The notes below the pieces were generated by a model. It had not been told where the DNA came from and searched no databases. It saw nothing but the letters and a program-made list of their open reading frames with translations. Shown here one piece after another: positions 3,566 through 48,756 of a stretch of 64,000 nucleotides of DNA (within the stretch, counting starts at the first letter, position 1; every line of letters begins with the position of its first letter). The translations under genes and the position numbers were made by a program. The stretch spans positions 46,965,001 to 47,029,000 of the forward strand of contig CM069876.1 of the NCBI GenBank assembly GCA_036172665.1, given 5' to 3'. Source of the DNA: Prosopocoilus inquinatus (lineage: Eukaryota > Arthropoda > Insecta > Coleoptera > Lucanidae).

Positions 3566-4466
3566 GTGTAAACCGATTTTCAAAGCTGAAACTGCAAACG
3601 CAGAAAAATTCAAATGCCGAATATGCGATTGCCAACTTAAAAATCGCAAGAACCTGCGCCGACATATATTGATACATACCGACGAGAAGCCGTTCAGTTG
3701 CGACGTGTGCGATTACAAATGTCGACAGCACGACAGTTTGAAATGTCACCAGTTAATACACGTCGACGAGAAGCCGTTCAATTGTGACCTGTGCGATTAC
3801 AATTGCCGACTGCTCCGAACTTTGAAGCGGCATAAGGCGACGCACACCAACGAAAAGCCGTTCAGTTGTGACGTTTGCGATTATAAATGCCGACGGCTCA
3901 GAGACTTGAAACATCACAAGCTAATACACACCGATGAGAAGCCGTTCAGTTGTAATCAGTGCGATTATAAGTGCCGACGGGTTGGGAACTTGAAACAGCA
4001 CGTGCTAACGCACACCAACGAGAAGCCGTTCGGTTGTGATCTCTGCGATTATAGTTGCCGATTGCTCCGAACTTTGAAGCGACATAAGTTAACTCACACC
4101 AGCGAGATGCCGTTCAGTTGCGATCTGTGCGATTTTAAGTGCCGGCAGCTCGAAAGTTTGAAATGTCACAAGCTGAAGCACACCAACGAGAAGCCGTTCG
4201 GTTGTGATCTTTGCGATTACGAATGCCTGCGGTTGGGAGATTTGAAACGGCACAGGCTAAAACACACCGACGAGAAGCCGTTCAGTTGTGATCTATGCGA
4301 TTATAGGTGTCGACAGTTCGGAAAATTGAACCAACACAAGTTAACACACACCAACGAGAAACCGTTCAGTTGTGATCTTTGCGATTATAAGTCCCGACAG
4401 CTCAGAGATTTGAAGCGGCATAAGTTAACACACACCGACCAGAAGCCGTTCGACGTCATTATTTGA
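3566..4466 (+). CDS. C2H2 zinc-finger cassette 1 (exon), 10 fingers
   Basis: Terminal exon of a poly-zinc-finger protein, expected to act as a nuclear DNA-binding factor. The pyrimidine tract TCTTTGTTTCAG ends at 3565; reading one base then codons gives a 16-residue leader (CKPIFKAE...) and ten C-x2-C-x12-H-x3-H fingers without gap from codon 17 to about 292. Linkers are T(D/N)EKPF instead of the classical TGEKPF. The protein ends in FDVII-stop, a tail shared with cassette 2. There is no ATG before finger 6, so an upstream exon must supply the start. AATAAA at 4523. Leader and tail identity with cassette 2 shows that the two are duplicates; cassette 2 has seven more fingers. Confidence 0.85.
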
Positions 4467-4499
4467 AGCGGCACGGACTATAACATAAGCGAAGCACGC

Positions 4500-6741
4500 C
4501 CATTGAAAATTACCTTTTGTGGAATAAAATATAAAAACATAAAAATAATCACATAATTGAAATTAACCTCCACCCACAATAATTTTTATATCCGTAGATA
4601 CGTATTTCGGCAGCTACGCTGCCATCTTCAGTACGCTACCAACTTAAAAGCATTAAAAAATGTCTAAAAACAACCACAATTGACAAAATCATAAAAATGT
4701 TAAACCTAACAACAATCATAATCGTTCGTTGTAATTGTCTGTTTGTGAGAGACCGTTTTTTAAATAAAAAATTAATTAAAAGCACTTTCTGTACTTGGGA
4801 AGACAAAAGAGAAACTTGGATCGATGGTAACTCTCTCACTGATTTTTATTTATTATTAAAAAAAAGAGAGAAACGCGAATCGATCGTTATTAGCAATCAT
4901 TTTCTCTTGGTGGTTGCTGCTGCAAAAAAAAAATAAAAAAAAAATAGTAGACGATTACAGTTTCCTGTAATTTTTCGTTCTACAGAATGATATTGTTTAA
5001 ATATGACATCACAGATCTTGCCTGCCAAGGCAAAATAGTATAATACGTGAAAGTGAAAGTGAATTTGGAGAAAAATTACTTTGTTTTTGGGCCGTTTAGT
5101 CCTTTTTTAAAGCCATAACCAACGATCGTTTTATAATGTTTTATATCAAAAATTAAATATGAAAAGTGAAAGTAAATTTGGAGAAAAATTACTTTTTTTA
5201 GGGTCATTTAGTCCTTTTTTATGGCCATAATCAACGAACTTTTTAAAATGTTTAATAAAAAAATACGGTAGAAACTATCTGAATGTTGTATAAGAAACAT
5301 TGTAAATAATAACCCGGTTATGGCGGCAAATTTAAAAATAAATTTTTGTCGCGTGTACTATTTTTCCTTAGCAGGCAAGATATGCGGTTCAATCATTTGT
5401 AGGCAAGTTCCGTTTAACTTAAACGGTGTTTGTGGTTTTCTTCTTTCCACTACAAACTATAATACTTCAATCCACCAGCCGTCACTGAGATAAGGTAGTG
5501 CAATTAATTTCGATAGTATAGTATGCTACCTTTTGTGGAACAAAATATAAAAATATAAAAATAATCGTTCGTTGTAATTGTGTTTGTGAGAGCCCGTTTT
5601 TTAAATAAAAATTAATTTAAAGCATTTTCTACTTGGGAAGACAAAAGAGAAACTTGGATCGATGGTAACTCTGTCACTGATTTTTATTTATTATTTAAAA
5701 AAGAGAGAAACGCGAATCGATCGTTATTAGCAGTCATTTTCTCTTGGTGGTTGCTGCTGCAAAAAAAAATAAAAAATAGTAGACGATTACAGTTTCCTGT
5801 AATTTTTCGTTCTACAGAAAGATATTGTTTAAATATGACATCACAGATCTTGCCTGCCAAGGCCAAATAGTACAATATGTGAAAGTGAAAGTGAATTTGG
5901 AGAAAAATTACTCTTTTTTTGGGCCGTTTAGTCCTTTTTTAAAGCCATAATCAACGAACTTTTTAAAATGTTTAATAAAAAAATACGGTAGAAACTATCT
6001 GAAAGTTGCATAAGAAACATTGTAAATAATAACCCGGTTATGGCGGCAAATTTAAAAATAAATTTTTGTCGCGTGTAGTATTTTTCCTTAGCAGGCAAGA
6101 TATGCGGTTCAATCTTTTGTAGGCAAGTTCCGTTTAACTTAAACGGTGTTTGTGGTTTTCTTCTTTCCACTACAAACTATAATACTTCAATCCACCAGCC
6201 GTCACTGAGATAAGGTAGTGCAATTAATTTCGATAGTATAGTATGCTACCTTTTGTGGAACAAAATATAAAAATATAAAAATAATCGTTCGTTGTAATTG
6301 TGTTTGTGAGAGCCCGTTTTTTAAAATAAAAATTAATTTAAAGCATTTTCTACTTGGGAAGACAAAAGAGAAACTTGGATCCATGGTAACTCTCTCACTG
6401 ATTTTTATTTATTATTAAAAAAAAAGAGGGAAACGCGAGTCGATCGTTATTAGTATCATCATTTTCTCTTGGTGGTTGCTGCTGCAAAAAAAAATAAAAA
6501 AAAATAGTAGACGATTACAGTTTCCTGTAGTTTTTCGTTCTACAGAATGATATTGTTTAAATATGACATCACAGATCTTGCCTGCCAAGGCGAAATAGTA
6601 TAATATGTGAAAGTGAAAGTGAATTTGGAGAAAAATTACTTTTTTTAGGGTCGTTTAGTCCTTTTTTTAAAGCCATAATCAACGTTCTTTTTAAAATATT
6701 TTATATTAAAAATTAAATATGATAGAAACTATCTGAAATGT
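4500..6741. repeat. Tandem array, 720-bp unit, about three copies
   Basis: Units repeat at exactly 720 bases between 5227 and 5947, with a diverged unit to the left (about 4507-5226) and the start of a fourth to the right (from 6672). Each unit contains the CCGTTTAACTTAAACGG palindrome, a GAGAGCCCG segment, a CTTGGTGGTTGCTGCTGC segment and runs of A. The short open frames in both directions recur unit by unit and show no protein-like pattern. The array starts in the 3' flank of cassette 1 and resumes at 8236 after an insertion. Confidence 0.85.
4605..4631 (-). ncRNA. Penelope-type hammerhead-like core
   Basis: On the minus strand CTGAAGA is followed by a six-pair stem GGCAGC/GCTGCC with loop GTA and then GAAA. 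CUGANGA-stem II-GAAA is the hammerhead core, and position 7 is free to vary. Such compact type I hammerheads are known from Penelope-like elements. Spacing is 27 bases as in the three other examples of this window. The flanking stems I and III were not resolved, so activity is unproven. Confidence 0.4.
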
Positions 6742-8236: not shown

Positions 8237-8581
8237 AAAAACATTGCAAATAATAACCCGGTTTTTGGACGTAAATTCAAAAATGAATTTTTGTCTCGTA
8301 TACTATTTTTTCTTAGCAGGCAGGAGATGGTTCAATCATTTGTAGGCAAGTTCCGTTTAATTTAAACGGTGTTTGTGGTTTTGTTCTTTCCACTGCTAAC
8401 TATAATACTTCAATCCACTATCCGTCACTGAGATAAGGTAGTGCAATTAATTTCGATAGTATAGTACGTTACATAAAGAATGCAGCTATGTAAAAAATGC
8501 ATAATTATAATCTGTAGCCGTAAATCTGCTTGTGTAATAATAATGGTGACTCGATTTTAACGAACGAACTCTTTGTTTCAG
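8236..8581. repeat. Resumed 720-bp array unit before cassette 2
   Basis: Matches the second half of the array unit (AACATTG..AATAATAACCCGG, then the CCGTTTAATTTAAACGG palindrome and TCACTGAGATAAGGTAGTG) up to about 8480. The remainder is the AT-rich lead-in to the splice acceptor of cassette 2. Confidence 0.75.
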
Positions 8582-10127
8582 GTGTAAACGGATTTCCAAA
8601 GCCAAAACTCTAAACACAGAAAAATTCAAATGCCGAATATGCGATTATCAACTTAAAAATCGTAAAACTTTACGCCGCCATATTTTAATACATACCGGCG
8701 AGAAACCGTTCACTTGCGACCTCTGCGATTACAAATGCCGACAGCGCGAGACTTTGAAATGTCACAGGCTGCTGCACACCGACGAAAAACCGTTCAACTG
8801 TGATCTGTGCGATTATAAATGCCGTCAGCTCGGACATTTGAAGCGGCACAAATTATTGCACACCGACGAGAAGCCGTTCAGTTGTGACATCTGCGATTAT
8901 AAGGGTCGCCAGTTCGTAGATTTGAAACACCATAAACGAAGACACACCGACGACAAGCCGTTCAGTTGTGATCTCTGCGATTACAAGTGCCGACGTCCCG
9001 GAGGGTTGAAACAGCACATGCTAACACATACGAACGAGAAGCCGTTCGTTTGCGACACCTGCGATTACAAGTGCCGGCAGCTCAAAGATCTGAAACATCA
9101 TAAGTTAACGCACACCAACGAGATGCCGTTCAGTTGTGATCTTTGCGATTATAAGTGCCTGCGGCTCGAAAGTTTCAAATGTCACAAGCTGAAACACACC
9201 AACGAGAAACCGTTGAGTTGCGATATGTGCGATTATAAAAGCCGATGGCTGCGAGATCTGCGAAAGCACAAGTTAACACACACCAACGAATATCCGTACA
9301 GTTGCGACATTTGCGATTATAAATGCCGACATAGCGGAAGCATGAGGTATCACAAGCTGAAACACGCCGACGAGAAACCGTTCAGTTGTGATCTCTGCGA
9401 TTATAAATGCCTACTGCTGCGAACCTTGAAACGGCATAAGTTAAAACACACAAACGAAAAGTCTTTCGTTTGTGACATGTGCGATTGTAGATTTCGACAG
9501 CTCCGACATTTGAAAAGCCATATCTTGAGACACATCAACGAGAAGCCTTTCAGTTGTGATAGCTGCGATTATACATGTCGACGGCTCGCAGATTTGAAAC
9601 AGCACAGGCTAAAGCACACCGACGAGAAGCCGTTCACTTGCGATCTTTGCGATTATAGGTGCCGACGGTTCGCAGAGTTGAAACAACATAAGCTGACGCA
9701 CAGCAACGAGAAGCCGTTCAGTTGTGATTTGTGCGATTTTAGCAGCCGACAGCTCGGAAATCTGAAACGACACAAGATGATACACACCAACGAGACGCCG
9801 CTCAGTTGTGATCTGTGCGATTATAAATCCCGACAACCCGGAGATTTGAAGCGACATAAGTTAAGACACACCGACGAGAAACCGTTCAGTTGTGATCTTT
9901 GCGATTATAAATGTCGGCAGCTCGGAAATTTTAAGTGTCACATGCTGAAACACAACGACGAGGAGCCGTTCAGTTGTGACCGTTGTGATTATAAGTGCGG
10001 ACAGCTCAGAAAATTGAAACGGCACAAGTCAACACACACCGATGAGACGCTATTCGGACAGCCCGGAGATTTGAAACTGCACATCTTAGCACACACCGAC
10101 GAAAAGCCGTTCGACGTCATTATTTAA
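8582..10127 (+). CDS. C2H2 zinc-finger cassette 2 (exon), 17 fingers plus a decayed one
   Basis: The longest finger array in the window. Acceptor CTCTTTGTTTCAG ends at 8581. The leader CKRISKAKTLNTEKFK precedes 17 regular fingers in 28-codon steps, with linkers mostly TDEKPF or TNEKPF. The eighteenth unit (about 10049-10090) lacks its CxxC half: TDETLF runs straight into GQPGDLKLHILAH, an in-frame loss of about 10-11 codons, so it cannot bind zinc. The tail TDEKPFDVII is the same as in cassette 1. Finger 11 has Phe at the core position where most others here have Cys. Poly(A) signals lie at 10383 and 10446. 514 codons plus stop. Confidence 0.88.
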
Positions 10128-10612: not shown

Positions 10613-11080
10613 GCGAGGGGGGAAAGATGTGACGACGAACTTTCGTCGTCACATCTTTCCCCCTTCATCAAAACTGACTTTTCAAAACCACACTTTTTCC
10701 TACGACATCATAATCGGAAGGGTTTATTCTTTTTTGCGAGGGGGGAAAGATGTGACGACGAAGTTTCCTCGTCACATCTTTCCCCCTTTATCAAAACTAA
10801 CTTTTCAAAACCACACTTTTTCCTACGACATCATAATCGAAAGGGTTTATTCTTTTTTGCGACGGGGGAAAGATGTGACGACGAACTTTCCTCGTCACAT
10901 CTTTCCCCCTTCATCAAAACTGACTCATCAAAACCACACTTTTTCCTACGACATCATAATCGGAAGGTTTTTTTGCGAGGGGGGAAAGATGTGACGAGGA
11001 AAGTTCGGCGTCACATCTTTCCCCCCTCGCAAAAAAGAACAAACCCTTCCGATTATGATGTCGTAGGAAAAACGTCGTAG
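10613..11080. repeat. Tandem array, 123-bp unit with palindrome
   Basis: Units begin at 10613, 10736, 10859 and 10975 (period 123, last step shortened by 7). Each starts with a hairpin: GCGAGGGGGGAAAGATGTGAC paired with GTCACATCTTTCCCCC. The fourth hairpin is followed by an inverted copy of the spacer, so the array ends in a large inverted repeat. The open frames through it in several phases simply reflect the repeat. The same palindrome occurs in the array at 14009-14290. Confidence 0.85.
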
Positions 11081-11109
11081 GTCTTGACAAGTTTGTTCTC
11101 ACCATCAGG

Positions 11110-11990
11110 AACACACACGACAAGTGCCGACGAGTTTGTCCGTTAAAACGGCACATGTTCGTACATACCGGCGGCGGTGGTGAAAAATCGCTCGGCTGCA
11201 CCTTCTGTCATTGCAAGTGCCGAAAACCTCGAAATCTAAAGTGGCACGTGTTGAAACATACCAGCGAGAAGCCGGTCACTTGTAACGTTTGCGATTAGAA
11301 ATGTCGAGAGCTCAAAGATTTAAAAGAGCACACACTGATACATACCGACAAGAAGCCGTTTAGGTGCGAACTCTGTGATTGCAGGTGCCGACAGGCCGGA
11401 AAATTTAATCTGCACAAGTTGAGGCGTACGGGCGAGAAGCCCCCTGTGCTGCGACTTTTGCGATTACAAGTGTCGACAGGGTGTAGACTTGAACGGGCGA
11501 CGAGAAGCCGTTTAGTTGTAATCTTTGCGACACACCGGCGAGAAGCCGTTTAGCTGGGAACTTTGAGCTTACAAGTGCCGCCAACTCATCTCTTTAAAGC
11601 TTCACGTGCAAACGCACAGCGACAGGAAGCCGTTCTGTTGCGATCTGTGCGATTAGAAATGCCGAAAGGCCGATTTATTAAAGTGGTACGTTTTGACGCG
11701 CACCGACGAGGAGCTGTTCAGTCGTGGCCTTCTCCATCGTAAACACATGTCGATGTACGCGGGCGTCAGGAATGCGTTCGTTTGTAGTTTGCGCGAATAC
11801 AAGACCCGCTTGTCCGTGGAGATTACCCGTCACGTGTTGAGACACACCGGCGAGAAGCCGATTGGTTGCGAGCTTTGCGCTTATAAATGCGTGCCATCTT
11901 CGATTCAATTGAAGCGGCACATGTTAACGCACACCAACGAGAAGCCGTTCAGCCGATCATAAATTTGAAAGTTCTAGCAACTTGAAACGT
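11110..11990 (+). pseudogene. Decayed C2H2 zinc-finger cassette
   Basis: Fingers can be read in register (KCRRVCPLKRHMFVHTGG, then CTFCHCKCRKPRNLKWHVLKH and others), but with several disruptions. TAG replaces TAC in CDYK at 11296 and at 11654; a TGC turned into TGA near 11564 with TGC to TGG beside it; frameshifts lie near 11440 and 11490. No splice acceptor or leader was found; the 123-bp array abuts its left end. The piece at 11693-11962 remains open and contains two near-normal fingers. A further lone linker-like fragment (CATACCGGCGAAAATCCC) lies at about 12105. Best read as a dead member of the cluster. Confidence 0.8.
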
Positions 11991-11999
11991 CATATGCTA

Positions 12000-12556
12000 A
12001 GTGGATTGTTCATACATTGTCATATAAGTGAAATAATTGTTGGAAAGTAGTCAAGTGTTATGTATATAGATTCGTATACGGTTTTAACGCAACATAACTT
12101 GACACATACCGGCGAAAATCCCTAACTTTCGCTTTACGATTAATAGTTTTTTGTCATCGAGCCACTATGTTTTGTTTATACAATTTAGAAGAAGTGTATA
12201 AGGTCATTACGAGTTATTACTTATTATTGAATGTTAATCTAAATTTAGGTTATGTAATAATACAATGCATGTATGCAATAAAATACAATTCAATTTTTTT
12301 TAATTGAACCCCAATCGACTGTTAACAGCTATTAATCTCTGGTCGATGGGCCATCGTTTAGGGGTCGATGAACTATTGTTCATCGGCTGAATAGTTCATC
12401 GACCCCTTTTAGATTTTCAACGCCCCCTGTTTTATGCCAATTTATACTTAACGAGGCACGACTCCTTTTGCAAATTGAGAATCAATCATTAATACGTGAT
12501 TTTTAATTTTCTTTTGTTTTCTCTTCATTTGATGTTTAAATCAAATTTCATTTTAG
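12000..12556. other. Spacer with an 18-bp perfect hairpin
   Basis: AT-rich spacer between the dead cassette and cassette 3. A perfect hairpin lies at 12360-12407: AGGGGTCGATGAACTATT with its complement after a 12-base loop. Its role is unknown; it could be a small foldback element or a 3' RNA hairpin. Confidence 0.5.
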
Positions 12557-13847
12557 GTACGAATGGTTTTCCGGAAATAAAACCGAGGACCTCGAGGCAA
12601 TTTGCGATTCCAAAGCGGATTTACGCAAGCACGTGCTGAAACACACCGGCCAAAAGCCGTTCCGATGCGCCGTTTGCGACCGTAAATTCGACGAAGTCCG
12701 AAGATTGAGGGGGCACGTGTCGACGCACGCCGGCGAAAAAAAATTCGGCTGTGAAATTTGCGACTACGAATGCCAACAGTCCGAATTACTGACGCGGCAC
12801 GTGTTAACGCACGAGCCGAAGCACACCGGCGAGAAGCTATTCCGTTGTGTGCTCTGCGATCTTAAATTTGAAGACATCGAAGAATTGAGTCAGCACGTGT
12901 CCGGACACATCCGAGACAAGTTCGGGTGTGACCTGTGCGACTACAAATGCCGAACGACCGAGGTTCTAAAACAGCACGTGTCGTCACACACCGGCAGGAA
13001 GCCCTTCGCTTGCAACCTGTGCGATCACAAATGTCGAACCAAATCGCAATTGAATCAGCACAAGTTGAAACATACCAGCGAGAAGCCTTACAGTTGTGAA
13101 CTTTGCGATTATAAAGGTCGACGGCGTGCGCATTTGAAGTGGCACATGTTGAAACATACAGATGGAGGGAGGTCGTTTAACTGTGACTTTTGTGACTACA
13201 CGAGCCGACGGCCCGGAGATGTGAAACGTCACCTGGTGGTGCACACTAAAGAAAGGCCTTTCACTTGCGATATATGCAACCATGCAAGCCGAGATGCTTC
13301 AGCTTTGAAAATGCATAAGCTGACACATACCGACGAGAAGCCGTTTAACTGCGACCTCTGCGATTACAAGGGTCGGCGATCCGCGTCACTGAAGCAGCAC
13401 ATGGTGAAAATGCACATCGGCGGCGAGAAGCCGTTCAGCTGCGACCTTTGCGATTATAGATTCCGTTACGCCTCTGTTTTGAAGAGTCACATGCTGACGC
13501 ACACCAACAAAAGGTTCAAGTGCGATGTTTGCGATTACAAGTGCGCGCAGTTCAGGGACCTAGGACTTCACAAGCTGACGCACACCGGCGAGGAGCCGTT
13601 CAGTTGTGACCTTTGCTGCTTCAAATGTCGGCGGGCAAGCAACTTGAAGCTGCACACGGCGACGCACACCGACGAGAAGCCGTTCATTTGCGACATTTGC
13701 GATCACAGAAACCGAACCAAACAGCAACTGAAGCGGCACATGCTGATACACACGGGCGAGAAGCCGTTTAGTTGTGACCTTTGCGATTACAAGTGTCGCA
13801 CGTCACATCACTTGAAACGGCACATGCCAAAACACCAACAACAATAA
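12557..13847 (+). CDS. C2H2 zinc-finger cassette 3 (exon), 14 fingers
   Basis: Acceptor TTTCATTTTAG ends at 12556. The leader YEWFSGNKTEDLEAICDSK fits the W-x-S-x-N-K pattern of other cassettes and ends in a half finger (ADLRKHVLKH) that has lost its CxxC. Fourteen complete fingers follow. Finger 9 has a HxxxxH variant (HMVKMH), and a short insertion EPKHTGEKLF lies between fingers 2 and 3. Fingers 1, 3 and 10 carry the classical core Phe (RKF, LKF, YRF). The C-terminus is HQQQ-stop. Linkers mix TGEKPF and TDEKPF, unlike cassettes 1 and 2, so this belongs to a different subgroup. 429 codons plus stop. First ATG in frame lies only within the fingers. Confidence 0.87.
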
Positions 13848-22680: not shown

Positions 22681-23632
22681 GAATCATCGGACTTCGAAAA
22701 ACCAACCGAAGAACAAATCGAGCAAAATCCTAGACCCCGCCGCTGGTGTGAAACGTCGCAGGTCGACACCTACCGGTGAAAATCCATTCACTTGCGAGCT
22801 TTGCCCCTACAAAAGTCGAACGAGCGGAACTCTGAAAAGGCACATGTTAACGCACACCGACGAGAAGCCGTTCAGTTGTGATCGTTGCGATTATAAATGC
22901 CGGTTCAAGACCAACCTGCAACAGCACCGGCTAACGCACACGGGAGAGAAGCCCTTGATTTGCGGCCTCTGCGATTTTAAATGTCGGCAAACCGCGAAGA
23001 TGAAAGTGCACATGCTGAAACACACCGGCGGCGAGAAGCCGTTCAGTTGTAAACTGTGCGATTACAAGTGCTGTCAAGCTGTGAATATGAGACGGCACGA
23101 GTTGACTCACACGGGCGAAAAGCCGTACAGTTGCGACGTGTGCGGTTACAAATGCCGGCAATCCGCGCGTTTGAGGGAGCACATGCTGAAACACACCGGC
23201 GGCGGTAAACGGCACAGTTGCAAATATTGCGCTTACAAGTCCCGTTATAGCGGGGACATGAAACGTCACATTTTGAGACACACCAGCGAAGAGTCCACTC
23301 GTTCGGACGATGAACAATTGACAGCGAAGCGCGTGCAAACTTGTACGGTTGAGAAGAGGTTCTGCTGCGGCGTTTGCAATTACAAGGGTCGACAAGCGTC
23401 GCATTTGACGGCGCACTTATCCGTACATACCGGCGAGAAACCGAAACCGATCAAATGTGGCGTTTGCGATTTCAGCTGTGAACAAATCGCGGATTTGAAG
23501 GCGCACGTGCAAACTCACGCCATCGAAAAACCGTTTGGTTGTAACCTGTGCGATTTCAAGTGTCAAAGATGGGCAGATTTGAAGACGCACGCGCGAACCC
23601 ATACCGGCGAGAAACCGATCAATTCGGAGTGA
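22681..23632 (+). CDS. C2H2 zinc-finger cassette 6 (exon), 9 fingers
   Basis: Acceptor AATGTTTTGTTTTAG ends at 22680. Leader NHRTSKNQPKNKSSKILDPA is basic and differs from that of cassette 5. Nine fingers follow, the first reading CELCPYKSRTSGTLKRH. All nine are complete here, including finger 6 which has lost a His in cassette 5. The two exons lie about 3.19 kb apart and their stops 3.198 kb apart; the C-terminal halves and about 300 bases of 3' flank are nearly the same, so the duplication is recent. Differences in fingers 2, 3 and 5 fall mainly at helix residues 1 to 3. AATAAA at 23704. 316 codons plus stop. Confidence 0.87.
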
Positions 23633-26398: not shown

Positions 26399-27773
26399 AT
26401 GGCGTCGGACGTTGAACACCCAACCGGAAAATGACGTAACGACCAAATTTCAAGACGTCACCAAAGTGAAGCGAAGCGTATTAAGCGAGAAGCCGTTCGC
26501 TTGCAAACTTTGCCCCTACAAATGCCGACAGAGCGGAAACTTAAAAATACACGTGCTAACGCACACCGACGACAAGCCGTTCGGTTGCGACCTCTGCGAT
26601 TACAAGTGCCGATTAAGCGCGCGCTTAAAACAGCACAGGTTAACGCACACGACCGAAAAGCCGTTGACCTGCAGCATTTGCGGTTACAAATGCCGCCAGA
26701 CCGGAGGAATGAAACAGCACATGCTAACGCACACCGACGAGAAACCGTTCGGCTGCGACATTTGCGACTACAGGTGCCGGCTGAAGAGAAACTTGCGCCA
26801 GCATAAGCTAACGCACACGGGGGAAAAGCCGTTGATCTGCGGCCTTTGCGATTTCAAATGCCGGCAAAGCGCGAAGATGAAGCTGCACATGTTGAAACAC
26901 ACGGGCGGCGAGAAACCGTTCGCTTGCAAGTTTTGCGATTACAAGTGCTGTCAAGCCGTCGACATGAGGCGGCATGAGCTGACGCACACGGGCGAAAAAC
27001 CGTTCAGTTGTGATCTGTGCGATTATAAATGTCGGCAATCCACGGGTTTGAGGCAGCACAGGTTGAAACACACAGGCGGCGGCGAAAAGCGATACAGTTG
27101 TGATTACTGCGGTTACAAGGCCCATCACAACGGAGTTATGAAGCGTCACGTTTTAAGACATGCCATCCGGGACTCCACTGGTGCCGACGAGAAACATTTG
27201 GCGACGAAGCCGTTCTGTTGCGGCGTTTGCAATTACAAGGGTCGGCAGGCCTCACATTTGACGGCGCACCTGCACGCCCATACCGGTGAGAAACCGGTGA
27301 TCAAATGTGGCGTTTGCGATTTCAAGTGTGAGCAGGTCGCAGATTTGAAGGCGCACATGCAGACTCACGCAGGCGCAGTCGAGAAGACGTATAGCTGTGA
27401 GCTCTGCGATTTCCAGTGTCGGCGACTCTCAAATTTGACGACGCACATGTCGAGTCACGCCGGCGAGAAGCCGCTTGGTTGTGATCTTTGCGACTTCAGA
27501 TGTCAACTGCGCGCGCATTTGATGGTACACATGCGCCGCACTCACGCCGTCGCCGTCGCGAAGGCGTTCAGCTGCGATCTCTGCGACTTCAAGTGTCAAC
27601 AAGCCGCGTATTTGACGACGCACATGCGCACTCACACCGGCGAGATGCCGTTCAGTTGCGAGCTTTGCGATTTCACGAGTGAACAACGCGCAGATTTGTC
27701 GACGCACATTCGAACTCACACACACAACGACTTGCTGCATCGCATGCCGAAGAAGGATAAGAAGATTAAATGA
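26399..27773 (+). CDS. C2H2 zinc-finger cassette 7 (exon), 14 fingers
   Basis: Acceptor GTTTTGTTTTTTTAG ends at 26398. An ATG lies at the first exon base but is in the wrong frame (it stops after 11 codons); the finger frame reads one base then WRRTLNTQPENDVTTKFQ. Fourteen fingers follow. Fingers 4 to 10 correspond to fingers 2 to 8 of cassettes 5 and 6, including the spaced region between fingers 8 and 9; fingers 11 to 14 are extra and use CDF heads (CELCDFQC, CDLCDFRC). Finger 12 has HxxxxH (HMRRTH). A basic tail MPKKDKKIK ends the protein. This appears to be the longer relative of cassettes 5 and 6. 457 codons plus stop. Confidence 0.88.
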
Positions 27774-29564: not shown

Positions 29565-29664
29565 TAGCTCCGTTGCAATCAAGACTGAAATGATACTTTT
29601 TTAATCGTATTCTATTGTGTTCTTTGTTTTAACGCGTGTTACTAAAATCCATTGTTTTTTCTAG

Positions 29665-30373
29665 ACATCACTGGATTTCCGAAAACAAAATACCGGATAA
29701 AATGAATGACGTTGCTTGCGATTTGACGTTGAAGTTTCAAGCCCCGGGAAAAGTGAAAGCCGGCAAGAGGACGTTCAGCTGCGACCTCTGCGGCTACTCG
29801 TTTCAAAAACTCGCGTTCCTAAACAGACACATGGTGGTGCACTCCGACGAGAAGCCGTTCAGCTGCGACCTCTGCGATTACAAGGGCAAATTTAAATACG
29901 GCCTGAAGCAGCACATGCTGACGCACACCGACGAGAAGCCGTTCTATTGCGGCGTTTGCGATTATAAGTGTCGGGAGACCGGCAAGCTGAAGCGGCACAT
30001 GAAGCGACACACGGGCGAGAAACCCCCGAAAACGATTAGCTGCAACTTCTGCGAGTACAAGTGCCGGCAAGCTGGGGATCTGAGGCGACACATGTTGACG
30101 CACACGGGGGAGAAGCCGTTCGGTTGCGATGTTTGCAGTTACAGGTGCGCGTCATCCACGAGCTTGAGACGTCACAGATTGAGGCACACCGGCGAGAAAC
30201 CGATCAGTTGCGACATCTGCAGTTACAAATGTCGGCAGGCGTCGCATTTAAAAACGCACATGTTGACGCATACCGACGAGAAACCTTTGTGTTGCGGCCG
30301 TTGCGATTACAAGTGCCTGAGATTCGCCGACCTGAAGAGTCACATGTTAATGCACGAAGAAGGAGACGATTAA
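29665..30373 (+). CDS. C2H2 zinc-finger cassette 9 (exon), 7 fingers
   Basis: Acceptor CATTGTTTTTTCTAG ends at 29664. The leader HHWISENKIPDKMNDVACD is one of the clearest examples of the shared W-I-S-E-N-K-I sequence, followed by about 20 unstructured residues (LTLKFQAPGKVKAGKR). Seven complete fingers follow; the linker between 3 and 4 is longer (TGEKPPKTIS). An in-frame ATG exists in the leader (DKMND), so in principle translation could start here, but the conserved residues before it argue for entry from an upstream exon. Acidic tail EEGDD. 235 codons plus stop. Confidence 0.86.
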
Positions 30374-31299: not shown

Positions 31300-32074
31300 A
31301 TGCCAACGGATTTCGGAAAATAAAATAATGGGCGAAATAACAGGCGAATGTGGCCGAAGCCGTTCTAAATCTAAATCGCGCAGACGCACGGACGGAAAGC
31401 TGCTTAGATGTGTCGTGTGTGATAACAGGTTTCGAGACCCGTGGAAATTGGAGCAGCACATGTCAACACATACGGGGGAGAAACCGTTCAGTTGCGATTT
31501 TTGCACTTACAAAGGTGGAGAACTCCGACTGCTGAAGGCGCACATGTTATCACACACCGGCGAGAAGCGATTTAAATGCACATTCTGCGATCACAAGAGC
31601 CGTGTGGCCGGAGATTTGAGGCGTCATATATTATCGTTACACACCGAGGAAAAGCCGTTTAGCTGTGATCTTTGCGATTACAAATGCAGACATCAGACGT
31701 ACTTGAAACTGCACATGTTGAAGCACACGGGCGAAATGCCGTTTAGGTGCGACCACTGCGCATATAAATGCGCGAGGCTCACAGATTTTAAAAGGCACAT
31801 GCTAACGCACACCCTTGAGAAGCCGTACAGTTGCTCTTTCTGTGATTACAAATGCCGACAGACGGCGTTATTAAAAAAGCACGAGCTGATACACACCGGA
31901 GAGAAACCGTTTAGTTGCACTTTTTGTGACTACAGGTGCCGACAATCCGGAGATATAAAACGTCACGAGTTGACGCATACGGGCGAGAAGCCGTTCAGTT
32001 GTGATTTTTGCGATTATAAGTGCCGACGAAAAGAACATCTGGAACGACACTTATTGGTACACACACGTGTGTAA
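31300..32074 (+). CDS. C2H2 zinc-finger cassette 10 (exon), 8 fingers
   Basis: Acceptor CATCTTCTGTTTCAG ends at 31299. Leader CQRISENKIMGEITGECG followed by a basic Arg/Ser stretch (RSRSKSKSRRR) that could help nuclear import. Eight fingers, from CVVCDNRFRDPWKLEQH to CDFCDYKCRRKEHLERH; finger 3 has HxxxxH (HILSLH). Tail TRV. The finger order matches cassettes 11 and 12 one by one, making this the more distant relative of that pair; unlike them it keeps the ISENKI leader. An in-frame ATG follows the leader. 257 codons plus stop. Confidence 0.87.
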
Positions 32075-33053
32075 ACACTTTTGAAATTTCATTAACGCGG
32101 GGGATTTTTATCTAACCTAGTGACCAGTGAAAAGAAAACACGTGTAGTGATTTTTTCTTAAATTTGTTAATTTGCTATTGTATTTAATTTTAGGCGTTTG
32201 TGTATTACAATAATTTATATTAAAAGCATTCAGGATGTTCAGTAAAAAATATGCAAATTTGGTTAGTAACTTTAAAACGCAACGCTCCATTGTTATTTCG
32301 TAAGCGGCAACCGTAAATACGCAAAAAAATATACAACTTTCATCTGAAGCCTTTTTTCCTAACTTCAAAAACAAAAGAATGCGGGCGCGATAATTTTTCG
32401 GTTTACGCCCTCTAGTAACTCGAAATTTAATTACGTCAGAATCAAGATGCGACCCATCAAATCACACTAATTTTTGACGCTGAATTCAAAAATGTAAAAA
32501 CATACAGGATGTTGTGTAATAAAACGCGTACTTGGTTAGTAACTTGAGAACGCGACGTTCAATTGTTTTTTCGTGAACGGCAACCGAAAGTGCGTAGAAA
32601 TGTACACAACTTTCATCTAAAGACTTTTTTCCCAACTTCAAAAACAAGAGAAAGCGGGCGCGATCATTTCTCGATTAGCGCCCTCTAGTAACTCTAAAAT
32701 TACTTACGTCAGACTAACCATGCGACACATCAAATCAAAATAATAAAAGGCGCCGAATTTAAAACTGTAAAAATATACAGGATGTTCTGTAAAAAATAGG
32801 CGAATTTGATTAGTAACTTGAAAACGCGACGTTCTATTGTTTTTTCGTAAGCGGCAATCGAAAGTGCACAGAAATGCAAATAACTCTCATCTGAAGAATT
32901 TTTTGCTAAGTTCAAAAACAAAAGAGCTGCGAGCGCGGGAAATATTAACTTTGCTTTTTGTTGTAACCCCGGCGCCGTCTTTAATGACTTTTCTTTTTTT
33001 ATTTAATTTTTGTTGTAAGTTTGAAACAGTAAAAACACCGTCTTCTGTTTTAG
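32075..33053. repeat. Spacer with three tandem units, about 270 bp
   Basis: Units repeat the order: ATACAGGATGTT(C/G), TTGGTTAGTAACTTGA, GCGACGTTC(A/T)ATTG, CATCTGAAGA, CTAACTTCAAAAAC, (A/G)CGCCCTCTAGTAACTC, AATTACGTCAGA, GCGACCCATCAAATCA. GCGCCCTCT is exact at 32678. Minus-strand frames starting MFLKLG.. recur in each unit and are by-products. Confidence 0.8.
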
Positions 33054-33759
33054 ATCGAGTTTGACAAAATTTGAATCTGCCGAAAAGCTGCTTAGATGTG
33101 TCGTGTGCAATTATAAATTTCGGGAGCCTCAGAAGTTGGAGCTGCACATGCTAATACATACCGGAGAGAAACTATTCAGTTGCAAGCTTTGCACTTACAA
33201 AGGTGGAGAACTTCGACTGTTGAAGGCGCACATGCGATCACACACCGGCGAGAAGCGATTCAAATGCAGTTTCTGCGATTACAAGTGCCGTGTATCCGGA
33301 GATATGAGACGTCATATGTTATTACACACCGGAGAAAAGCCGTTCAGCTGTGATCTTTGCGATTATAAATGCCGATATCAGATGAACTTGAGGCAGCACA
33401 TGTGGAAGCACACGGGCGAGATACCGTTTAGTTGCGACCACTGCGATTATAAATGTTTGCGGATGTTTTATTTAAAAAGGCACATGCTAACGCACACCCA
33501 AACAAAGCCGTACAGTTGCGCTCTTTGTGATTACAAGTGCCGACAATCCACGCATTTAAAAGCGCACATGCTGAAACATACCGGTGAGAAACCGTTTAGT
33601 TGCAATTTTTGTAGTTACAAGTGCCGGAGATCCGGAGATATAAAGCGTCACGAGTTGACGCATACAGGTGAGAAGCCGTTCAGTTGTGATTTTTGCGATT
33701 ACAAGTGCGGACGAAAAGAAGTTTTGGAACGGCACGTATTGGTACATAAACAGTTCTGA
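33054..33759 (+). CDS. C2H2 zinc-finger cassette 11 (exon), 8 fingers
   Basis: Acceptor CGTCTTCTGTTTTAG ends at 33053. The leader has shrunk to SSLTKFESAEKLLR, lacking the ISENKI motif. Eight complete fingers follow with mostly TGEKPF linkers, one TQTKPY. Tail KQF. Cassette 12 lies 2,234 bases downstream and is nearly the same along the exon and flanks (about 23 differences in some 230 residues). Between the two the last five fingers differ mostly at DNA-contact residues. Poly(A) candidates AATAAA repeat at about 33840-33870. 234 codons plus stop. Confidence 0.87.
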
Positions 33760-36991: not shown

Positions 36992-37418
36992 ATTCCGATG
37001 GATTCCCGAAATCAAAATCATGAACGACTTGGACGAATGCCTTCTCTGCGGCGACCGTTTCCAAGACCTCGAAGTACTGAAGCATCACATACTGACGCAC
37101 ACCGTGTTGAAACCGTACAGTTGCGCCCTCTGCGGCTACAAGTGCCGACGGAACGGGCAGCTGAAGACGCACATGCTGATACACACCGACGAGAAGCCTT
37201 TCGGTTGCGATCTTTGCGAGTACAGATGCCGACAGCGTTATTCCTTGAAACAGCACATGGTGATACACACCGAGGAGAAGCCGTTCGGTTGCGATCGCTG
37301 CGATTACAGAGGCCGACGGATCAGCGACCTGAGAAGGCACGGGTTAAGACATCGACGAGAAGCAGCCGTCAAGTTGTCACCACCTTTAAATTCGTTTGTC
37401 GACGCCAAGCAGGTTTGA
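36992..37418 (+). CDS. C2H2 zinc-finger cassette 13 (exon), 4 fingers, truncated
   Basis: Acceptor TTTTTTTTTAATTTTAG ends at 36991. Leader FRWIPEIKIMNDLDE fits the R-W-I-x-E-x-K-I consensus closely. Four complete fingers (CLLCGDRFQDLEVLKHH through CDRCDYRGRRISDLRRH). After the fourth the frame reads RREAAVKLSPPLNSF to a stop, while the neighbouring frame still shows finger material (KFVCRRQAGLKEQM). A deletion near 37350 therefore shifted the frame and removed at least one finger. Whether the shortened protein is still made cannot be told. 141 codons plus stop. Confidence 0.8.
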
Positions 37419-38758: not shown

Positions 38759-39158
38759 GAGGGACCACCGGCTTTCGGAAAACAAAATCACGGACAAATC
38801 GGCACTCGAATGTCGCACTTGCGGTTCTAAATTCAAAGCACGCCGCTATTTGCTCAAGCATATGCTGATACACACGGACGAGAAGCTGTTCAGGTGCGCA
38901 GTGTGCGATTACAAGTTTCACGATTCGTGGAAACTGAAGCGGCACGTGCTGACGCACACCGACGAGAAGCCGTTCGGCTGTGATCTTTGCGACTACAAGT
39001 GCCGCCTGAAACAAAATTTGAAAGAGCACAGGTTGATACACGCCGACGAGAAGCTGTTCGGTTGTGATCGCTGCAGTTACAAGTGTCAGCGGCATACAAA
39101 CTTAAAGCGACACATGTCGATACATACAAGGGGCGATAAAATATATGCAGACAAGTAG
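38759..39158 (+). CDS. C2H2 zinc-finger cassette 14 (exon), 4 fingers
   Basis: Acceptor GCGTCTTTTATTTTAG ends at 38758. Leader RDHRLSENKITDKSALE is a clear form of the shared leader. Finger 1 CRTCGSKFKARRYLLKH keeps the classical Phe; finger 2 also (CAVCDYKFHDSWKLKRH); fingers 3 and 4 have Cys at that site. Tail TRGDKIYADK. No internal Met precedes finger 1, so a start must come from another exon. Short but without visible damage. It is followed within 30 bases by an inverted-repeat element, which may have removed former 3' sequence. 132 codons plus stop. Confidence 0.84.
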
Positions 39159-40213: not shown

Positions 40214-40760
40214 ATTCCGTTCGCTTAGGTTTTTCAGAAGAAGCAAATTAATTCGCGATTGCAAATTTCGAAACTTGGACGAACCGAAACTCGCTCGTCA
40301 CTCGTCAACGCACGTCGACCACGACGAGGATCCGTTCGGCTGCGACGGGAAACTCCGAGACTTGAAAACGCACCGTACGACACGCACCGGCGACAAACCG
40401 TACGCCTGTAAATTCTGCGGTTACAGGTGCAAGCGCGGCACGAACCTGAAGGCCCACGAGTTGATACACACCGGTGAGAAACCGCTGGGCTGTGACGTTT
40501 GCAGTTACAGGTGTCGAGACACCGCAAATTTGAAGCGCCACAGACTCAAACACACCGGCGGCGGTGAAAAACTGCTCGGATGTAATTACTGCGGTTACAA
40601 GTCCCGATTCTCCACGGATATAAAACGTCACGTGTACACGCACACCGGCGAGAAACCCATCAAGTGCGTCCTGTGCGCTTACAAATGCCGACAGCCCGCG
40701 AATTTGAAGTACCACATGCGAAAGCACGCCGACGAAGAAGAAGAAGAAGATTTTTCATGA
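40214..40760 (+). CDS. C2H2 zinc-finger cassette 15 (exon), 4 intact fingers plus 2 degenerate
   Basis: Acceptor CTGTTTCGTTTCAG ends at 40213. Leader FRSLRFFRRSKLIRDCKF is basic. Two degenerate units come first: one with a single Cys (RDCKFRNLDEPKLARHSSTH) and one lacking its middle (FGCD-GKLRDLKTHRTTR). Four regular fingers follow (CKFCGYRCKRGTNLKAH to CVLCAYKCRQPANLKYH), the third preceded by a Gly-rich linker THTGGGEKLLG. The protein ends in an acidic run ADEEEEEDFS encoded by GAAGAA repeats. AATAAA near 40862. 181 codons plus stop. Confidence 0.83.
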
Positions 40761-41339: not shown

Positions 41340-42800
41340 AGGTATGATCCCAAGCCGGTTACGGTTCTGCGATCGTATTTTGTCATTTTTATTTTTTTAC
41401 GTCAAAATTTTTAGCGGCAGAGTTCAACGATCGTCTTTTGTTTTTGTTTTTTTTTTCTTCTTTTACGTCAAAAAAAAGAGTGTCGCAGTTCGACGATCGT
41501 ATTCTATCGTTTTTATTTTTTCATGTCAAAAATTTGAGTGTAAAAGTTTGGAGATCGTCTTTTGTTTTTTCTTCTTCTAAATGAAAAATATGCTTGTCAC
41601 AGGTTTGGCGATCGTCTGTTGTTTTTTTTTTGTGGTGTCAAAAATGAGTCGCAGTTTGTCGATTGTTTTCCGTTGGTTTTATTTTTTTTACATAAAAAAT
41701 TTCGACTTCGGCAATCGTCTCTCGCGCCATTTTTTTTCTACATCTTTTGTTTTTTTTTTTAATGTCAAAAATATGAAAGAGATTTTTGAGTGTCTCAGTT
41801 TGACGATCGTTTTTTGTTAAATTTTTTTTTGTACATAATGTCAGACACGTACCGACATTTTCGTGCGTCACAGTTTGGCGAACGTCTTTTGTTCCTTTTA
41901 TGTCAAAAATATTAGATAGGTAAGTTTTTGTGTGTCAGAGTTTGGCGATCGTCATTTGTCATTTTAATTTTTTTGCATTTATCTTCTGTCAAAAATACGC
42001 GTTACGTTTCTGAGTGTCAGAGTGTGACGATCGTCTTTTATTTCTGGTGTCAAAAATATGAAATAGGAGTACGTTTTTTGAGTGTGAAAGTTTGGCGATC
42101 GTCTTTTGTTTTTTTCTTCTTCTAGATAAAGAATTAGAATGTCACAGGTTTGGCGATTGTTTTTTGTTTGTTTTTTTTTTAGTGCCAAAAATGAAAGACA
42201 GTCGCAATTTGTCGATTGTCTTTCGTTGGTTTTATTTTTTTATGTCAAAAATCGAGGATCGTCTCTCGCGTCATTTTTTTTTCTATAACTTTTGTTTTTC
42301 TTTTTTAATGTCAAGAATATCAAACAGGTTTTTGAGTGTCGATCGTTTTTTGGTACATTTTTTTTGCAAAAATGTCAGATAGGTATCCACAGCGTTTTCG
42401 AGCATCACTTTTGTTCTCTTTATGTCAAAAATGTTAGATACGTAAGTTTTGTGCGTCGTCAGAGTTTGGCGATCGTCTTTTGTCATTTTAATTTTTGGTA
42501 TTTATCTGCTGTCAAAAATACACGAAACGTTTCCGAATGTCAGAATGTAACGATCGCTTTTTGTTCTTCCATGTCAAAAATATGAAATACGTTTTTTTTG
42601 AGCGTGACAGTTTGGCGATCGTCTTTTGTTTTTTTAGGTATGTCAAAATGTGAGAGAGGTTTAGAGCGTCAGAGTTCGTCAATCGTCTCTCGCTTTTTCA
42701 ATTTTTTACACGTGATGCGTTGACGTTTTTATGTGTTAAAGTTTAGCGATCGTCTTTTGTTTTGTTTTGTTTTTTTTTTCAAGTCAAGAATGTGATGAGA
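41340..42800. repeat. Tandem array of CGATCGTCTTTTGT units with 540-bp higher order
   Basis: About 21 units of 50-90 bases, each with a form of TTGGCGATCGTCTTTTGTTT followed by a T-rich run and (A)TGTCAAAAAT. Blocks beginning GTCACAGGTTTGGCGAT at 41597 and 42139 continue with the same order of variants, so there is a higher-order period of about 540 bases. The related word in reverse orientation occurs at 16020-16600, and ATCGATCGTCATTTG-like words occur at 46520-46570. Long Phe-rich frames are artefacts. Confidence 0.85.
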
Positions 42801-43848
42801 TACTTTTCCGAGTGTCAGATGTCAGATGTTGAAGGTCCTGATTTGTTTGTGTTCGTTTAATTTCTTTTGTATGTCAAAAATATGAAATGATTTCGTTGAG
42901 GTTATGTCGCTGTGAATACGCGAAGAAAAGATTCTGAAACGTCAAACTTCAGCAACTCCTTCGCCTTTTTCTGTTCAAACGTCATCTGTCAATGTCAAAA
43001 CTCTCTTACATTTTGGGCGGGACTTAAACGAAGCAAAACAAAAATAAACCCGAGCTACAATGGAACATTGAAATTTGTATTAAACGTCAGAACTACTACT
43101 AGTGACATTTGACAGGCCAAACGTCAAAAATATTAAAATTCTATTTACACTGGAGGAATGACGTGTCCGAATTTTGCTGTCCGCTGCTGTACACAGGTAC
43201 ATATTAAATTAAAATTAAATTTCAGGCTGTCCGATATGTCAAATCACCAAAATTACTGGATCTAGTGACAAAATTACTAAATTGGCAACACTGAAGTACG
43301 TTTCTGACTTGTCGGATATCATCGGATTTCTAGTTCTCTCTTGACCTTGGTATCATTTCTAACGAGAAAGTCCCTGTATTTAAAACAGATTTCAAAATTC
43401 CCAAAAAATCACCGCTAGGTTATGTTTTAACCAAGAGGAGTAATTTAAATTTGCCCGCCAGAAACACTCTCGAATATTATTGGCTGTCCGACATCCAGTT
43501 TCATACTACCACCCTTCAACTTAAAATTGCACAATTCTTCTGACGGTTTTTTAGTCAGTTTTTAAACTTGTTTGCCAGAACTGGTTATTTGACGAACTGT
43601 CAAAGTTTCTCAGCCAATGTCATTTGCTGTCTCAATCTGCCTACAACAACATGAGCTACCGCCCTGTGAAACTGTAACATTCGAGTCCCGTACACCCTGT
43701 ATGCGTGTTGTGTATATTAAACATATTTTTTATTGTTTTGCTTAAATCATCATTTTTTAAAAATGTTTACTTATTCATGTCTAAACTTGCACAAACTTAA
43801 TGTTCGTTTTTTTTTTTAATTCTACTGAGAACGTTCCTTTTATTTCAG
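42801..43848. other. Spacer before cassette 16
   Basis: Starts as a fading continuation of the preceding array (GTCAAAAATAT words to 43130). At about 43690 there is an ACACCCTGTATG terminus. No gene recognised. Confidence 0.45.
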
Positions 43849-47480: not shown

Positions 47481-47507
47481 CTGATGAGGCCTTAATTAGG
47501 ACCGAAA
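47481..47507 (+). ncRNA. Hammerhead-ribozyme-like core
   Basis: CTGATGA, stem II GGCCT/AGGACC (one bulged A) around TAATT, then GAAA. The flanks may pair as a long imperfect stem I: CGGATTGCGG at 47445-47454 with CCGCAATC at 47553-47560, with GAGTCG and CGACTT outside. This is the best candidate of the group as both outer strands match. The short stem III and cleavage triplet are not resolved. Confidence 0.45.
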
Positions 47508-47633
47508 TGCGCTGTACAGAGGATCCAAAGAGAATCCCAACCGCAATCTGCGCGCCGACTTCCTACGAGCTTTAATAAAACTTAATGTTCGTTTTTAATT
47601 TGTGATTGATATTAAAATTCATTTTTTTTTTAG

Positions 47634-48756
47634 GCGCAAGCGCAAACAGCCTTCCGTTCCTTCTAAACCCGAGAACAAAAGGAAATTCCAGTGCGACATC
47701 TGCGATTCAAAGTTTTCAACTCAGGGGTACTTAAAGAAGCACGCGCTGATACACACCGGCGAGAAACCGTTCGACTGCGACCTTTGCGATTACAAGGCGC
47801 GATTCCTCGCCCAATTGAAACAGCACAGGTTGAAACACAGCAACGAAAATCCGTTCAGGTGTACGCTCTGCGATTACAAATGCGGCATAGCCGCGAGATT
47901 GAGATCGCACATGTTCAGACACAGCAATACCCGGCGGTTCGGCTGTGATCGGTGCCAATACAAGACCAATTTCCTCGGGCACTTAAAACGGCACATGTTG
48001 ACACACGCCGACGAGAAACCGTACAAGTGCGACCAGTGCGATTACGGATGTCGCCAGGCAGGATCCTTGAAAGAACACGTGCGGAAACACGCCGGCGAAA
48101 AACCGAACAGTTGTAACCTCTGCGATTACAAGTGCGCGCGTCCCGTAAGTTTGAACCAGCATGTGCTTAAAACGCACACCCGCCCCGACAAGCTCAGCTG
48201 TGACGTTTGCGATTACAAATGCCGACATCCCCAGTACATGAGGCTGCACAAATTAAAACATACGAAATCCGCGAACAAAAGAAAATTCCAGTGCGACATC
48301 TGCGAGTCTGAATTTACGACGCGGGCGTGTTTAAGGAAGCACGTGTTGTCACACACCGGCGAGAAACCCTTCAACTGCGATCTCTGCGATTATAAGGATC
48401 GAGATCAGGTAGGTTTGAAAAATCACAAGTTGATACACGCCACTGACGCGGAGAAGGAGCACGTAGAAACACATACCGGTGAGAAGCAATCGTTCAGCTG
48501 TGACGTTTGCGATTATAAATGCGTGAGAAAGGAAGATCTGAACGCTCATAACTTGATACATACCGATGAAGAAAAGGCGTTTAGTTGTGGCCTTTGCGAT
48601 TACAGGGGCCGGCAACTTTTTGAGATTAAACGGCACATGTTGACACACCAAGTGAGTTGTAACATTTGCCGTTATAAGTGCTGGAATTCGGTAGATATGA
48701 AGCGGCACAAGGTGAAACACGACGCGACGCGACGGCGAGAAGAGGTTCAGTTGTAA
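47634..48756 (+). CDS. C2H2 zinc-finger cassette 17 (exon), 12 fingers, composite
   Basis: Acceptor ATTCATTTTTTTTTTAG ends at 47633. Leader RKRKQPSVPSKPENKRKF is basic and could be a nuclear import signal. Twelve complete fingers, the first CDICDSKFSTQGYLKKH. Between fingers 7 and 8 the leader-like phrase SANKRKFQCDICESEF recurs, so the exon looks like two cassettes joined in frame. A 20-residue odd linker precedes finger 10. After finger 12 the frame runs DATRRREEVQL to a stop; finger-like sequence continues after it in another frame. 373 codons plus stop. Confidence 0.86.

What the first reader, a model, noticed from the sequence alone, without database searches (positions are those of the whole stretch)
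3566..48756. Seventeen zinc-finger exons, all entered in the same splice phase: possible alternative-exon hub
Every one of the 17 finger cassettes starts at a pyrimidine-tract AG and is read as one base plus whole codons (phase 2). Checked by length: exon length minus one divides by three in all 17. Most have no ATG before the first finger (cassette 1 has none until finger 6). Several leaders share R-W-I-S-E-N-K-I (cassettes 3, 9, 10, 13, 14), which is conserved even where a downstream Met exists. Each ends in its own stop, and most have AATAAA signals. Known precedent: insect BTB genes lola, broad and mod(mdg4) splice a common 5' exon to many 3' exons with zinc-binding domains, in lola and mod(mdg4) partly in trans. 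A set of this size with 4-17 fingers per exon would be new to me. The donor exon is not visible here, so this is inference; separate genes with small first exons remain possible.
Basis: partly seen in the sequence, partly recalled or inferred. Interest (0 to 1): 0.92.

Follow-up and report, generated by a model that had tools for sequence, protein, structure and literature searches.

The report
Seventeen alternative zinc-finger tail exons
A 45-kb stretch of what is likely a beetle genome carries 17 zinc-finger open frames in a row on one strand, each predicted to be spliced at the same codon position to something upstream; they are likely interchangeable tails of one gene, which would let it make many DNA-binding proteins, though ordinary separate genes are nearly as likely.

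Summary
In detail: 17 plus-strand frames of 4-17 C2H2 fingers, each opening at a pyrimidine-tract AG and read as one base plus whole codons. In 17 of 17 the frame closes within 35 bases upstream of the AG. In 13 of 17 no Met precedes the first finger, and the 145 pre-Met codons compared between cassettes 1 and 2 evolve at dN/dS 0.19. So most start codons must be spliced in. The shared phase reflects tandem duplication, not 17 independent events.

The source of the start was not seen. No conserved private coding first exon was found in the 17 gaps; gap 9 is 489 bp, and gaps 11-12 are mostly repeat. This favours a shared donor left of the window. But local donors are weak, so tiny private exons are not excluded, and tandem ZF271-like gene clusters are known in insects (PMC6444547). 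No BTB was found in the window (one recalled query). All 22 requests to search the home genome did not complete.

Verdict: real array; alternative terminal exons of one gene (cis 0.45, trans 0.10) against separate genes (0.40). An 18th, dead cassette lies at about 11.1-12.1 kb.

The parts
3566..4466 (+). cassette 1, 10 fingers, predicted terminal exon (1 base + 299 codons + stop); first Met at residue 181
8582..10127 (+). cassette 2, 17 fingers, 514 aa; closest to cassette 1 (72% aa)
11100..12122 (+). 18th, dead cassette: 11 finger-like pieces in several frames with in-frame stops (outer limits approximate)
12557..13847 (+). cassette 3, 14 fingers, 429 aa
16910..18281 (+). cassette 4, 16 fingers, 456 aa
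19492..20434 (+). cassette 5, 8 fingers, 313 aa; only cassette whose first exon base is a pyrimidine (C)
22681..23632 (+). cassette 6, 9 fingers, 316 aa; an in-frame ATG lies in its pyrimidine tract
26399..27773 (+). cassette 7, 14 fingers, 457 aa
28521..29175 (+). cassette 8, 7 fingers, 217 aa
29176..29664 (.). gap 9, 489 bp, the shortest gap: one ATG-led phase-2 GT donor scoring at least -4 (score -1.9), next to a finger relic
29665..30373 (+). cassette 9, 7 fingers, 235 aa, leader HHWISENKI
31300..32074 (+). cassette 10, 8 fingers, 257 aa, leader CQRISENKI
32221..32925 (.). repeat of about 273-bp units filling most of gap 11 (979 bp); related units in gap 10 (30691-31143) and gap 12 (34226-35162)
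33054..33759 (+). cassette 11, 8 fingers, 234 aa
35288..35993 (+). cassette 12, 8 fingers, 234 aa; 90% aa identity to cassette 11
36992..37418 (+). cassette 13, 4 fingers, 141 aa, leader FRWIPEIKI
38759..39158 (+). cassette 14, 4 fingers, 132 aa, leader RDHRLSENKI
40214..40760 (+). cassette 15, 4 intact fingers, 181 aa
43849..45097 (+). cassette 16, 12 fingers, 415 aa
47634..48756 (+). cassette 17, 12 fingers, 373 aa; finger relics continue to 49076 in other frames

Best explanation
The 17 zinc-finger frames are predicted terminal exons that are likely spliced, one at a time, onto a shared upstream 5' exon lying outside the window, giving proteins that would have one common N-terminus and 17 different finger arrays. 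All stand on one strand, so splicing from one long pre-mRNA in cis is the simpler form. The exon set grew by local tandem duplication of cassette plus 3' flank, with loss of some copies. Shown: open frames, common phase, missing start codons, purifying selection before the first Met, no conserved private coding first exon in the gaps tested, variable DNA-contact positions, one dead copy. Inferred: the shared donor, cis splicing, and what the N-terminus is.
For: Start codon must come from upstream: 13 of 17 lack a Met before the first finger, 12 of these even when read unspliced; pre-Met codons are constrained in pair 1/2 (145 codons, dN/dS 0.19) and pair 11/12 (31 codons, 0.26). Coding ends at the AG: in-frame stop within 35 bases in 17 of 17. 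No private first exon seen: with GT donors scoring at least 2 by a PWM recalled from memory, 6 of 17 gaps hold an ATG-led phase-2 exon against 11 (phase 0) and 7 (phase 1), and 9 of 17 on the antisense strand; even at the permissive score of -4, none is conserved in six paralogous gap pairs, among them 11/12, where 832 bp upstream of the acceptor align at 88.6%. Between-gap peptide matches (frames of 15 aa or more, E up to 0.01) are repeats, finger relics or F-rich low complexity. What stays conserved between cassettes 1 and 2 directly upstream is the acceptor: 90% identity over the last 20 bases, then 50% and less per 20-base block, at dS 0.77. Room is short: gap 9 is 489 bp; gaps 11 and 12 keep 146 and 122 bp outside repeated sequence; in gap 8, 65 bp separate a repeat from the AG. 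Contrast: annotated polydactyl proteins of Bicyclus and Nilaparvata carry their own, mutually similar but not identical N-termini. Same strand for 17 of 17, and for all 22 finger relics.
Against: No donor exon and no transcript was seen. Real donors nearby are weak: of 8 read by eye in the PGES2 and CUB-like genes, 4 score 2 or more, 2 fall below -2 and one is a GC donor (four of the scores by hand), so the donor test has about half power at threshold 2, and at -4 every gap holds at least one ATG-led phase-2 candidate. The pair test is strong only for 11/12; other gap pairs align poorly or only in repeats, and phases 0 and 1 also gave almost no conserved candidates (0 and 1 over six pairs). 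A start split over two or more exons, non-coding private exons, or frames under 15 aa were not tested. ZF271-like clusters of separate genes without further domains are described in insects (PMC6444547, section 11). Pre-Met dN/dS is less clear in other pairs: 0.45 (6/7, 50 codons), 0.55 (16/17, 36), 1.04 (5/6, 19), 0.78 (8/10, 9). Cassettes 5, 9, 10 and 13 have a Met before the first finger, and 6 an ATG in its tract.
Confidence: 0.45

Rival explanations
1. Ordinary tandem cluster of separate ZF271-like genes. Each cassette has its own promoter and a tiny first exon (start codon plus a few codons, phase 2) in the gap before it; the phase is shared because the genes are duplicates.
For: Tandem clusters of 4-8 ZF271-like genes, with pseudogenes and with no domain besides fingers, are reported in Oncopeltus (PMC6444547); this array also has a dead copy and neighbour-biased similarity. 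At score -4 all 17 gaps hold at least one ATG-led phase-2 donor; the best are 41900-41919 (score 6.9) and 638-666 (5.4).
Against: No such exon is conserved in the six gap pairs tested, 11/12 included; no phase-2 excess; gap 9 offers one candidate at -1.9; gaps 11-12 are nearly all repeat.
Confidence: 0.4
2. mod(mdg4)-like trans-splicing: each cassette is transcribed from its own promoter as a separate acceptor RNA and joined in trans to a common 5' transcript.
For: Needs an acceptor but no private donor, as observed. mod(mdg4) makes over 30 isoforms this way in Drosophila (PMC12692577), and monarch mod(mdg4) draws on 24 acceptor genes (PMC4667647 passages).
Against: All 17 are on one strand, whereas mod(mdg4) acceptors lie partly on the opposite strand; the beetle Tribolium is reported to have a cis-spliced mod(mdg4)-like gene. 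Fingers are C2H2 arrays; no FLYWCH in the 6 of 17 cassettes given to Pfam.
Confidence: 0.1
3. Unspliced genes that start at an internal Met, the leader being 5' UTR.
For: Cassettes 5, 9, 10 and 13 have a Met before the first finger, and 6 an ATG in its tract.
Against: Cassettes 1, 2, 3 and 15 would lose 4-6 fingers, yet those codons are constrained in pair 1/2 (dN/dS 0.19).
Confidence: 0.05

Closest known systems
lola (Drosophila)
   Same: Would share one N-terminal region and swap C-terminal exons, most with Zn fingers; at least 20 isoforms by cis- and trans-splicing (PMC1947980 passages).
   Different: Here the exons hold 4-17 fingers each, against one or more unique fingers in most lola isoforms; no BTB found in the window; donor unseen.
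mod(mdg4) (Diptera, Lepidoptera)
   Same: Many alternative 3' exons, some in tandem-duplicated runs, joined to a common 5' part (PMC4667647 passages; PMC12692577 section 1, first of five parts).
   Different: FLYWCH rather than C2H2 arrays, acceptors on both strands in flies, trans-splicing.
ZF271-like / APEZ clusters (pea aphid, Oncopeltus)
   Same: Tandem clusters, long finger arrays with 5-residue linkers, no other domain, pseudogenes (PMC6444547 section 11).
   Different: Reported as clusters of 4-8 separate genes that differ in exon structure; here 17 live frames share one acceptor phase and one strand.
broad (insects)
   Same: BTB gene with alternative zinc-finger 3' exons (recalled; no call).
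   Different: Few exons, few fingers each (recalled).

Membership tests
BTB hub (lola, mod(mdg4), broad type) | common 5' exon with a BTB domain | not testable with these tools
   Donor would lie left of the window; 22 unanswered genome searches. Inside the window one recalled Drosophila lola BTB domain gave no match better than E 4.7 by tblastn.
BTB hub (lola, mod(mdg4), broad type) | many alternative terminal exons entered in one phase | tested here: met
   17 of 17 in one phase, each with its own stop. That they are alternatives of one gene is inferred.
BTB hub (lola, mod(mdg4), broad type) | mRNAs share one N-terminus | not testable with these tools
   No transcripts of this species at hand; nearest PGES2 relatives are about 64% identical.
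mod(mdg4) acceptor exons | FLYWCH-type zinc finger | tested here: not met
   Pfam scan of 6 of 17 cassettes (1, 2, 3, 8, 16, 17): C2H2 families, no FLYWCH at E up to 0.01.
ZF271-like cluster | tandem arrays of C2H2 fingers with conserved linkers, 3-45 repeats per protein | tested here: met
   4-17 fingers with TGEKP-like linkers.
ZF271-like cluster | no domain besides fingers | tested here: inconclusive
   True of the 6 of 17 cassettes scanned, apart from weak chance-level rows; the N-terminus is unknown.
ZF271-like cluster | separate genes with their own 5' exons | tested here: inconclusive
   No conserved private coding first exon found, but weak local donors limit power.

The most novel reading that the evidence does not exclude
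One insect gene works as a cartridge holder: a single N-terminal effector is fitted, by choice of terminal exon, with any of at least 17 long C2H2 arrays whose DNA-contact residues have diverged, so a whole repressor family of the KRAB-zinc-finger kind would be packed into one locus by splicing instead of by gene copies.
Probability: 0.5. Interest if true: 0.78.

Novelty: new variant of a known kind. Interest (0 to 1): 0.48.

Why it matters
If the exons share a donor, finger families could expand without copying promoter and effector, every new array being tied to the same partner protein; that would be a splicing-based answer to the problem that vertebrates solved with hundreds of KRAB zinc-finger genes. 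It would also mean that gene counts of such families in insect genomes are wrong. Even as separate genes, 17 live copies with hypervariable contact positions plus a dead one make a clean case of birth and death.

Tried and rejected
Strict donor scarcity: at score 4 or more the sense strand of the gaps holds 6 donors against 26 antisense and 12.2 +/- 3.4 in shuffles, which looked decisive. Dropped after calibration: real donors of the neighbouring PGES2 gene score 3.46, 2.97, 2.92 and -3.53, and at score 2 the gaps hold 53 against 45.4 +/- 5.2.

Poly(A) signals as proof of terminal exons: not clearly above background.

Element at 3330-3442 / 8335-8442 (four copies, with an invariant AAGGTAGT) as a private first exon: copies recur twice more in gap 2 without a cassette and have no open frame reaching the donor in phase 2; treated as a repeat. 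Shared blocks of gaps 4 and 5: likely the ends of an inverted-repeat transposon. Hammerhead-like elements as promoters or splice signals: only 3 places, one of them 1025 bp from an acceptor.

Donor candidate at 638-666 in gap 1 (MVKVYYRNI, ends AG, score 5.4) as the hub donor itself: in the right place and phase, but 140 bp after a GIY-YIG element frame and unsupported; left open.

Relatives: the best 120 rows of 5072 (cassette 7) and of 3604 (cassette 10) show no BTB accession (PF00651) by eye. No beetle is named in the first list; one (Photinus, with ZAD, 38%) in the second. The leader pattern is in none of the 239 proteins.

Junction base: purine in 16 of 17 against 5 of 9 acceptors of the two neighbour genes read by eye (Fisher P 0.034); the 17 are paralogues, so this is no strong evidence.
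Full report
What is there. Seventeen open frames on the + strand between 3566 and 48756 encode arrays of C2H2 fingers (CDLCDYKCRQ..LKRH..TH.DEKPF type). Each begins behind an AG with a pyrimidine-rich tract (53-88% pyrimidine; other AGs in the gaps average 49%), and its length is one base plus whole codons to its own stop, 17 of 17. Finger counts are 4 to 17. In 17 of 17 the frame is closed by a stop 11-35 bases upstream of the AG, p about 5e-6 against other AGs if taken as independent.

Organism. The PGES2 gene on the minus strand (57.8-60.9 kb) was joined from five pieces and searched. The top row is a moth fusion protein (52% over 69% of the query); the rows named with an organism that follow, down to P0156, are beetles at 53-64% (organism groups recalled). 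So the window is likely from a beetle without close annotated relatives. Two cassettes were searched (7 and 10 of 17): the best 120 rows of each list are polydactyl proteins of bugs, moths and butterflies, krill, fish and others, mostly under 55% identity, with no close relative.

The start lies upstream. In 13 of 17 there is no Met before the first finger; cassettes 1, 2, 3 and 15 have 4-6 fingers before one. Read unspliced through the AG, only cassette 6 of these 13 gains an ATG, inside its tract. The codons before the first Met are under purifying selection in cassettes 1 and 2 (145 codons, dN 0.141, dS 0.745) and in 11 and 12 (31 codons, dN/dS 0.26); other pairs are less clear: 6/7 0.45 (50 codons), 16/17 0.55 (36), 5/6 1.04 (19), 8/10 0.78 (9), 9/10 0.14 (9). 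Whole-cassette dN/dS is 0.20-0.35 in seven of eight pairs; the eighth, 9/10, is saturated. So the leaders are protein-coding and a spliced-in start is needed for most cassettes.

Same phase is descent. The best-matching cassette lies within two positions in 9 of 17 cases (shuffled mean 3.8, P 0.012), and 11/12 are 90% identical with 832 bp upstream of the acceptor at 88.6%. Hence phase identity does not separate a hub from a gene cluster.

Looking for private first exons. The gaps (33,079 bp) were scanned for ATG-led frames ending at a GT donor, scored with a recalled matrix. At score 2, phase-2 exons occur in 6 of 17 gaps, phase 0 in 11, phase 1 in 7; the antisense strand gives 9 for phase 2. 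At 0 the sense numbers are 10, 15 and 12; at -4 they are 17, 16 and 16. No phase-2 candidate at -4 or better is conserved in six paralogous gap pairs (11/12, 6/7, 1/2, 16/17, 10/11, 10/12); phases 0 and 1 gave 0 and 1. Power is limited: of eight donors read by eye in the two neighbouring genes, four reach 2, two are below -2 and one is GC (four of these scored by hand), and the gaps of most pairs hardly align. Peptides of 15 aa or more shared between gaps (717 frames, E up to 0.01) are repeats, finger relics or F-rich stretches. The block shared by gaps 4 and 5 is likely a transposon with inverted ends. Gap 9 is 489 bp with one candidate scoring -1.9; gap 11 keeps 146 bp and gap 12 keeps 122 bp outside sequence repeated in the window; in gap 8, 65 bp lie between a repeat and the AG. 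What does stay alike directly upstream of cassettes 1 and 2 is the acceptor: 90% over the last 20 bases, then 50% and less per block, at dS 0.77.

What private starts look like elsewhere. Eleven Bicyclus and 21 Nilaparvata proteins from the two lists carry long N-termini (in Nilaparvata the first finger is at residue 70-281) that resemble one another without being identical; only one Nilaparvata pair shares an identical run of 30 or more residues, and its fingers are 96% alike too. Nothing comparable was found in the present gaps: N-termini of seven lepidopteran proteins and a recalled lola BTB domain gave no match below E 0.79 outside finger sequence. But ZF271-like proteins of Oncopeltus are reported to have no domain besides fingers, in tandem clusters of 4-8 genes with pseudogenes (PMC6444547, section 11), so very short private starts are a live alternative.

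Function. Over 154 strict fingers, the five most variable positions are the helix positions -1, +1, +2, +3 and +6 (entropy 2.98-3.57 bits; next 2.73), with zinc ligands and framework fixed (position names recalled). So the arrays likely recognise different DNA sequences. A dead cassette at 11.1-12.12 kb (11 pieces, stops and frameshifts) and 11 further relics, all on the + strand, show turnover.

Known systems. lola joins a BTB region to at least 20 C-terminal exons by cis- and trans-splicing (PMC1947980, passages); mod(mdg4) joins common exons in trans to over 30 alternative 3' exons (PMC12692577, first part of section 1), with 24 acceptor genes in the monarch and a cis-spliced homologue in Tribolium (PMC4667647, passages). 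Six literature searches (listings, open-licence PMC only) showed no report of a hub with polydactyl arrays; that is no proof of absence.

Judgement. Alternative terminal exons of one gene in cis 0.45, in trans 0.10, separate genes 0.40, unspliced 0.05. The deciding sequence, left of the window, could not be read: 22 identical requests to search the home genome and one to fetch a stretch of it did not complete.

Noticed in passing
window 11100-12122: Dead zinc-finger cassette with in-frame stops and frameshifts between cassettes 2 and 3.
   Followed up: partly
window 2540, 29550, 47493: Three copies of a CTGATGA...CGAAA element like a hammerhead ribozyme core; Rfam Hammerhead_1 scores 13.1 bits at 29532-29590 against a gathering score of 34; no such match at the other two.
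   Followed up: partly
window 2-496: GIY-YIG endonuclease frame (Pfam E 2.1e-6), looks like the end of a Penelope-like retroelement (recalled).
   Followed up: no
window 22581-22607 and 26313-26339: Finger-linker relics (THTGEKLLS, THTGEKPFS) about 60-100 bp before the acceptors of cassettes 6 and 7, as if duplication breakpoints fell inside a finger.
   Followed up: no
window 10613-11025: 123-bp tandem repeat, 3.4 copies, made of inverted halves (GGGGGAAAGATGTGACGA...TCGTCACATCTTTCCCCC).
   Followed up: no
window 53590-56590: Multi-exon secreted CUB-like gene on + (family name by eye; the one frame given to Pfam, 55788-56198, had no match); it appears to use a GC donor, CAG|GCAAGT.
   Followed up: partly
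window 58188: PGES2 exon 4 appears to end at an unusual weak donor GTAGCG (score -3.53).
   Followed up: no
window 43793-43848 and 47578-47633: An identical AAACTTAATGTTCGTTTTT stretch 38-56 bases before the acceptors of cassettes 16 and 17, although their coding parts are about 50% alike.
   Followed up: no
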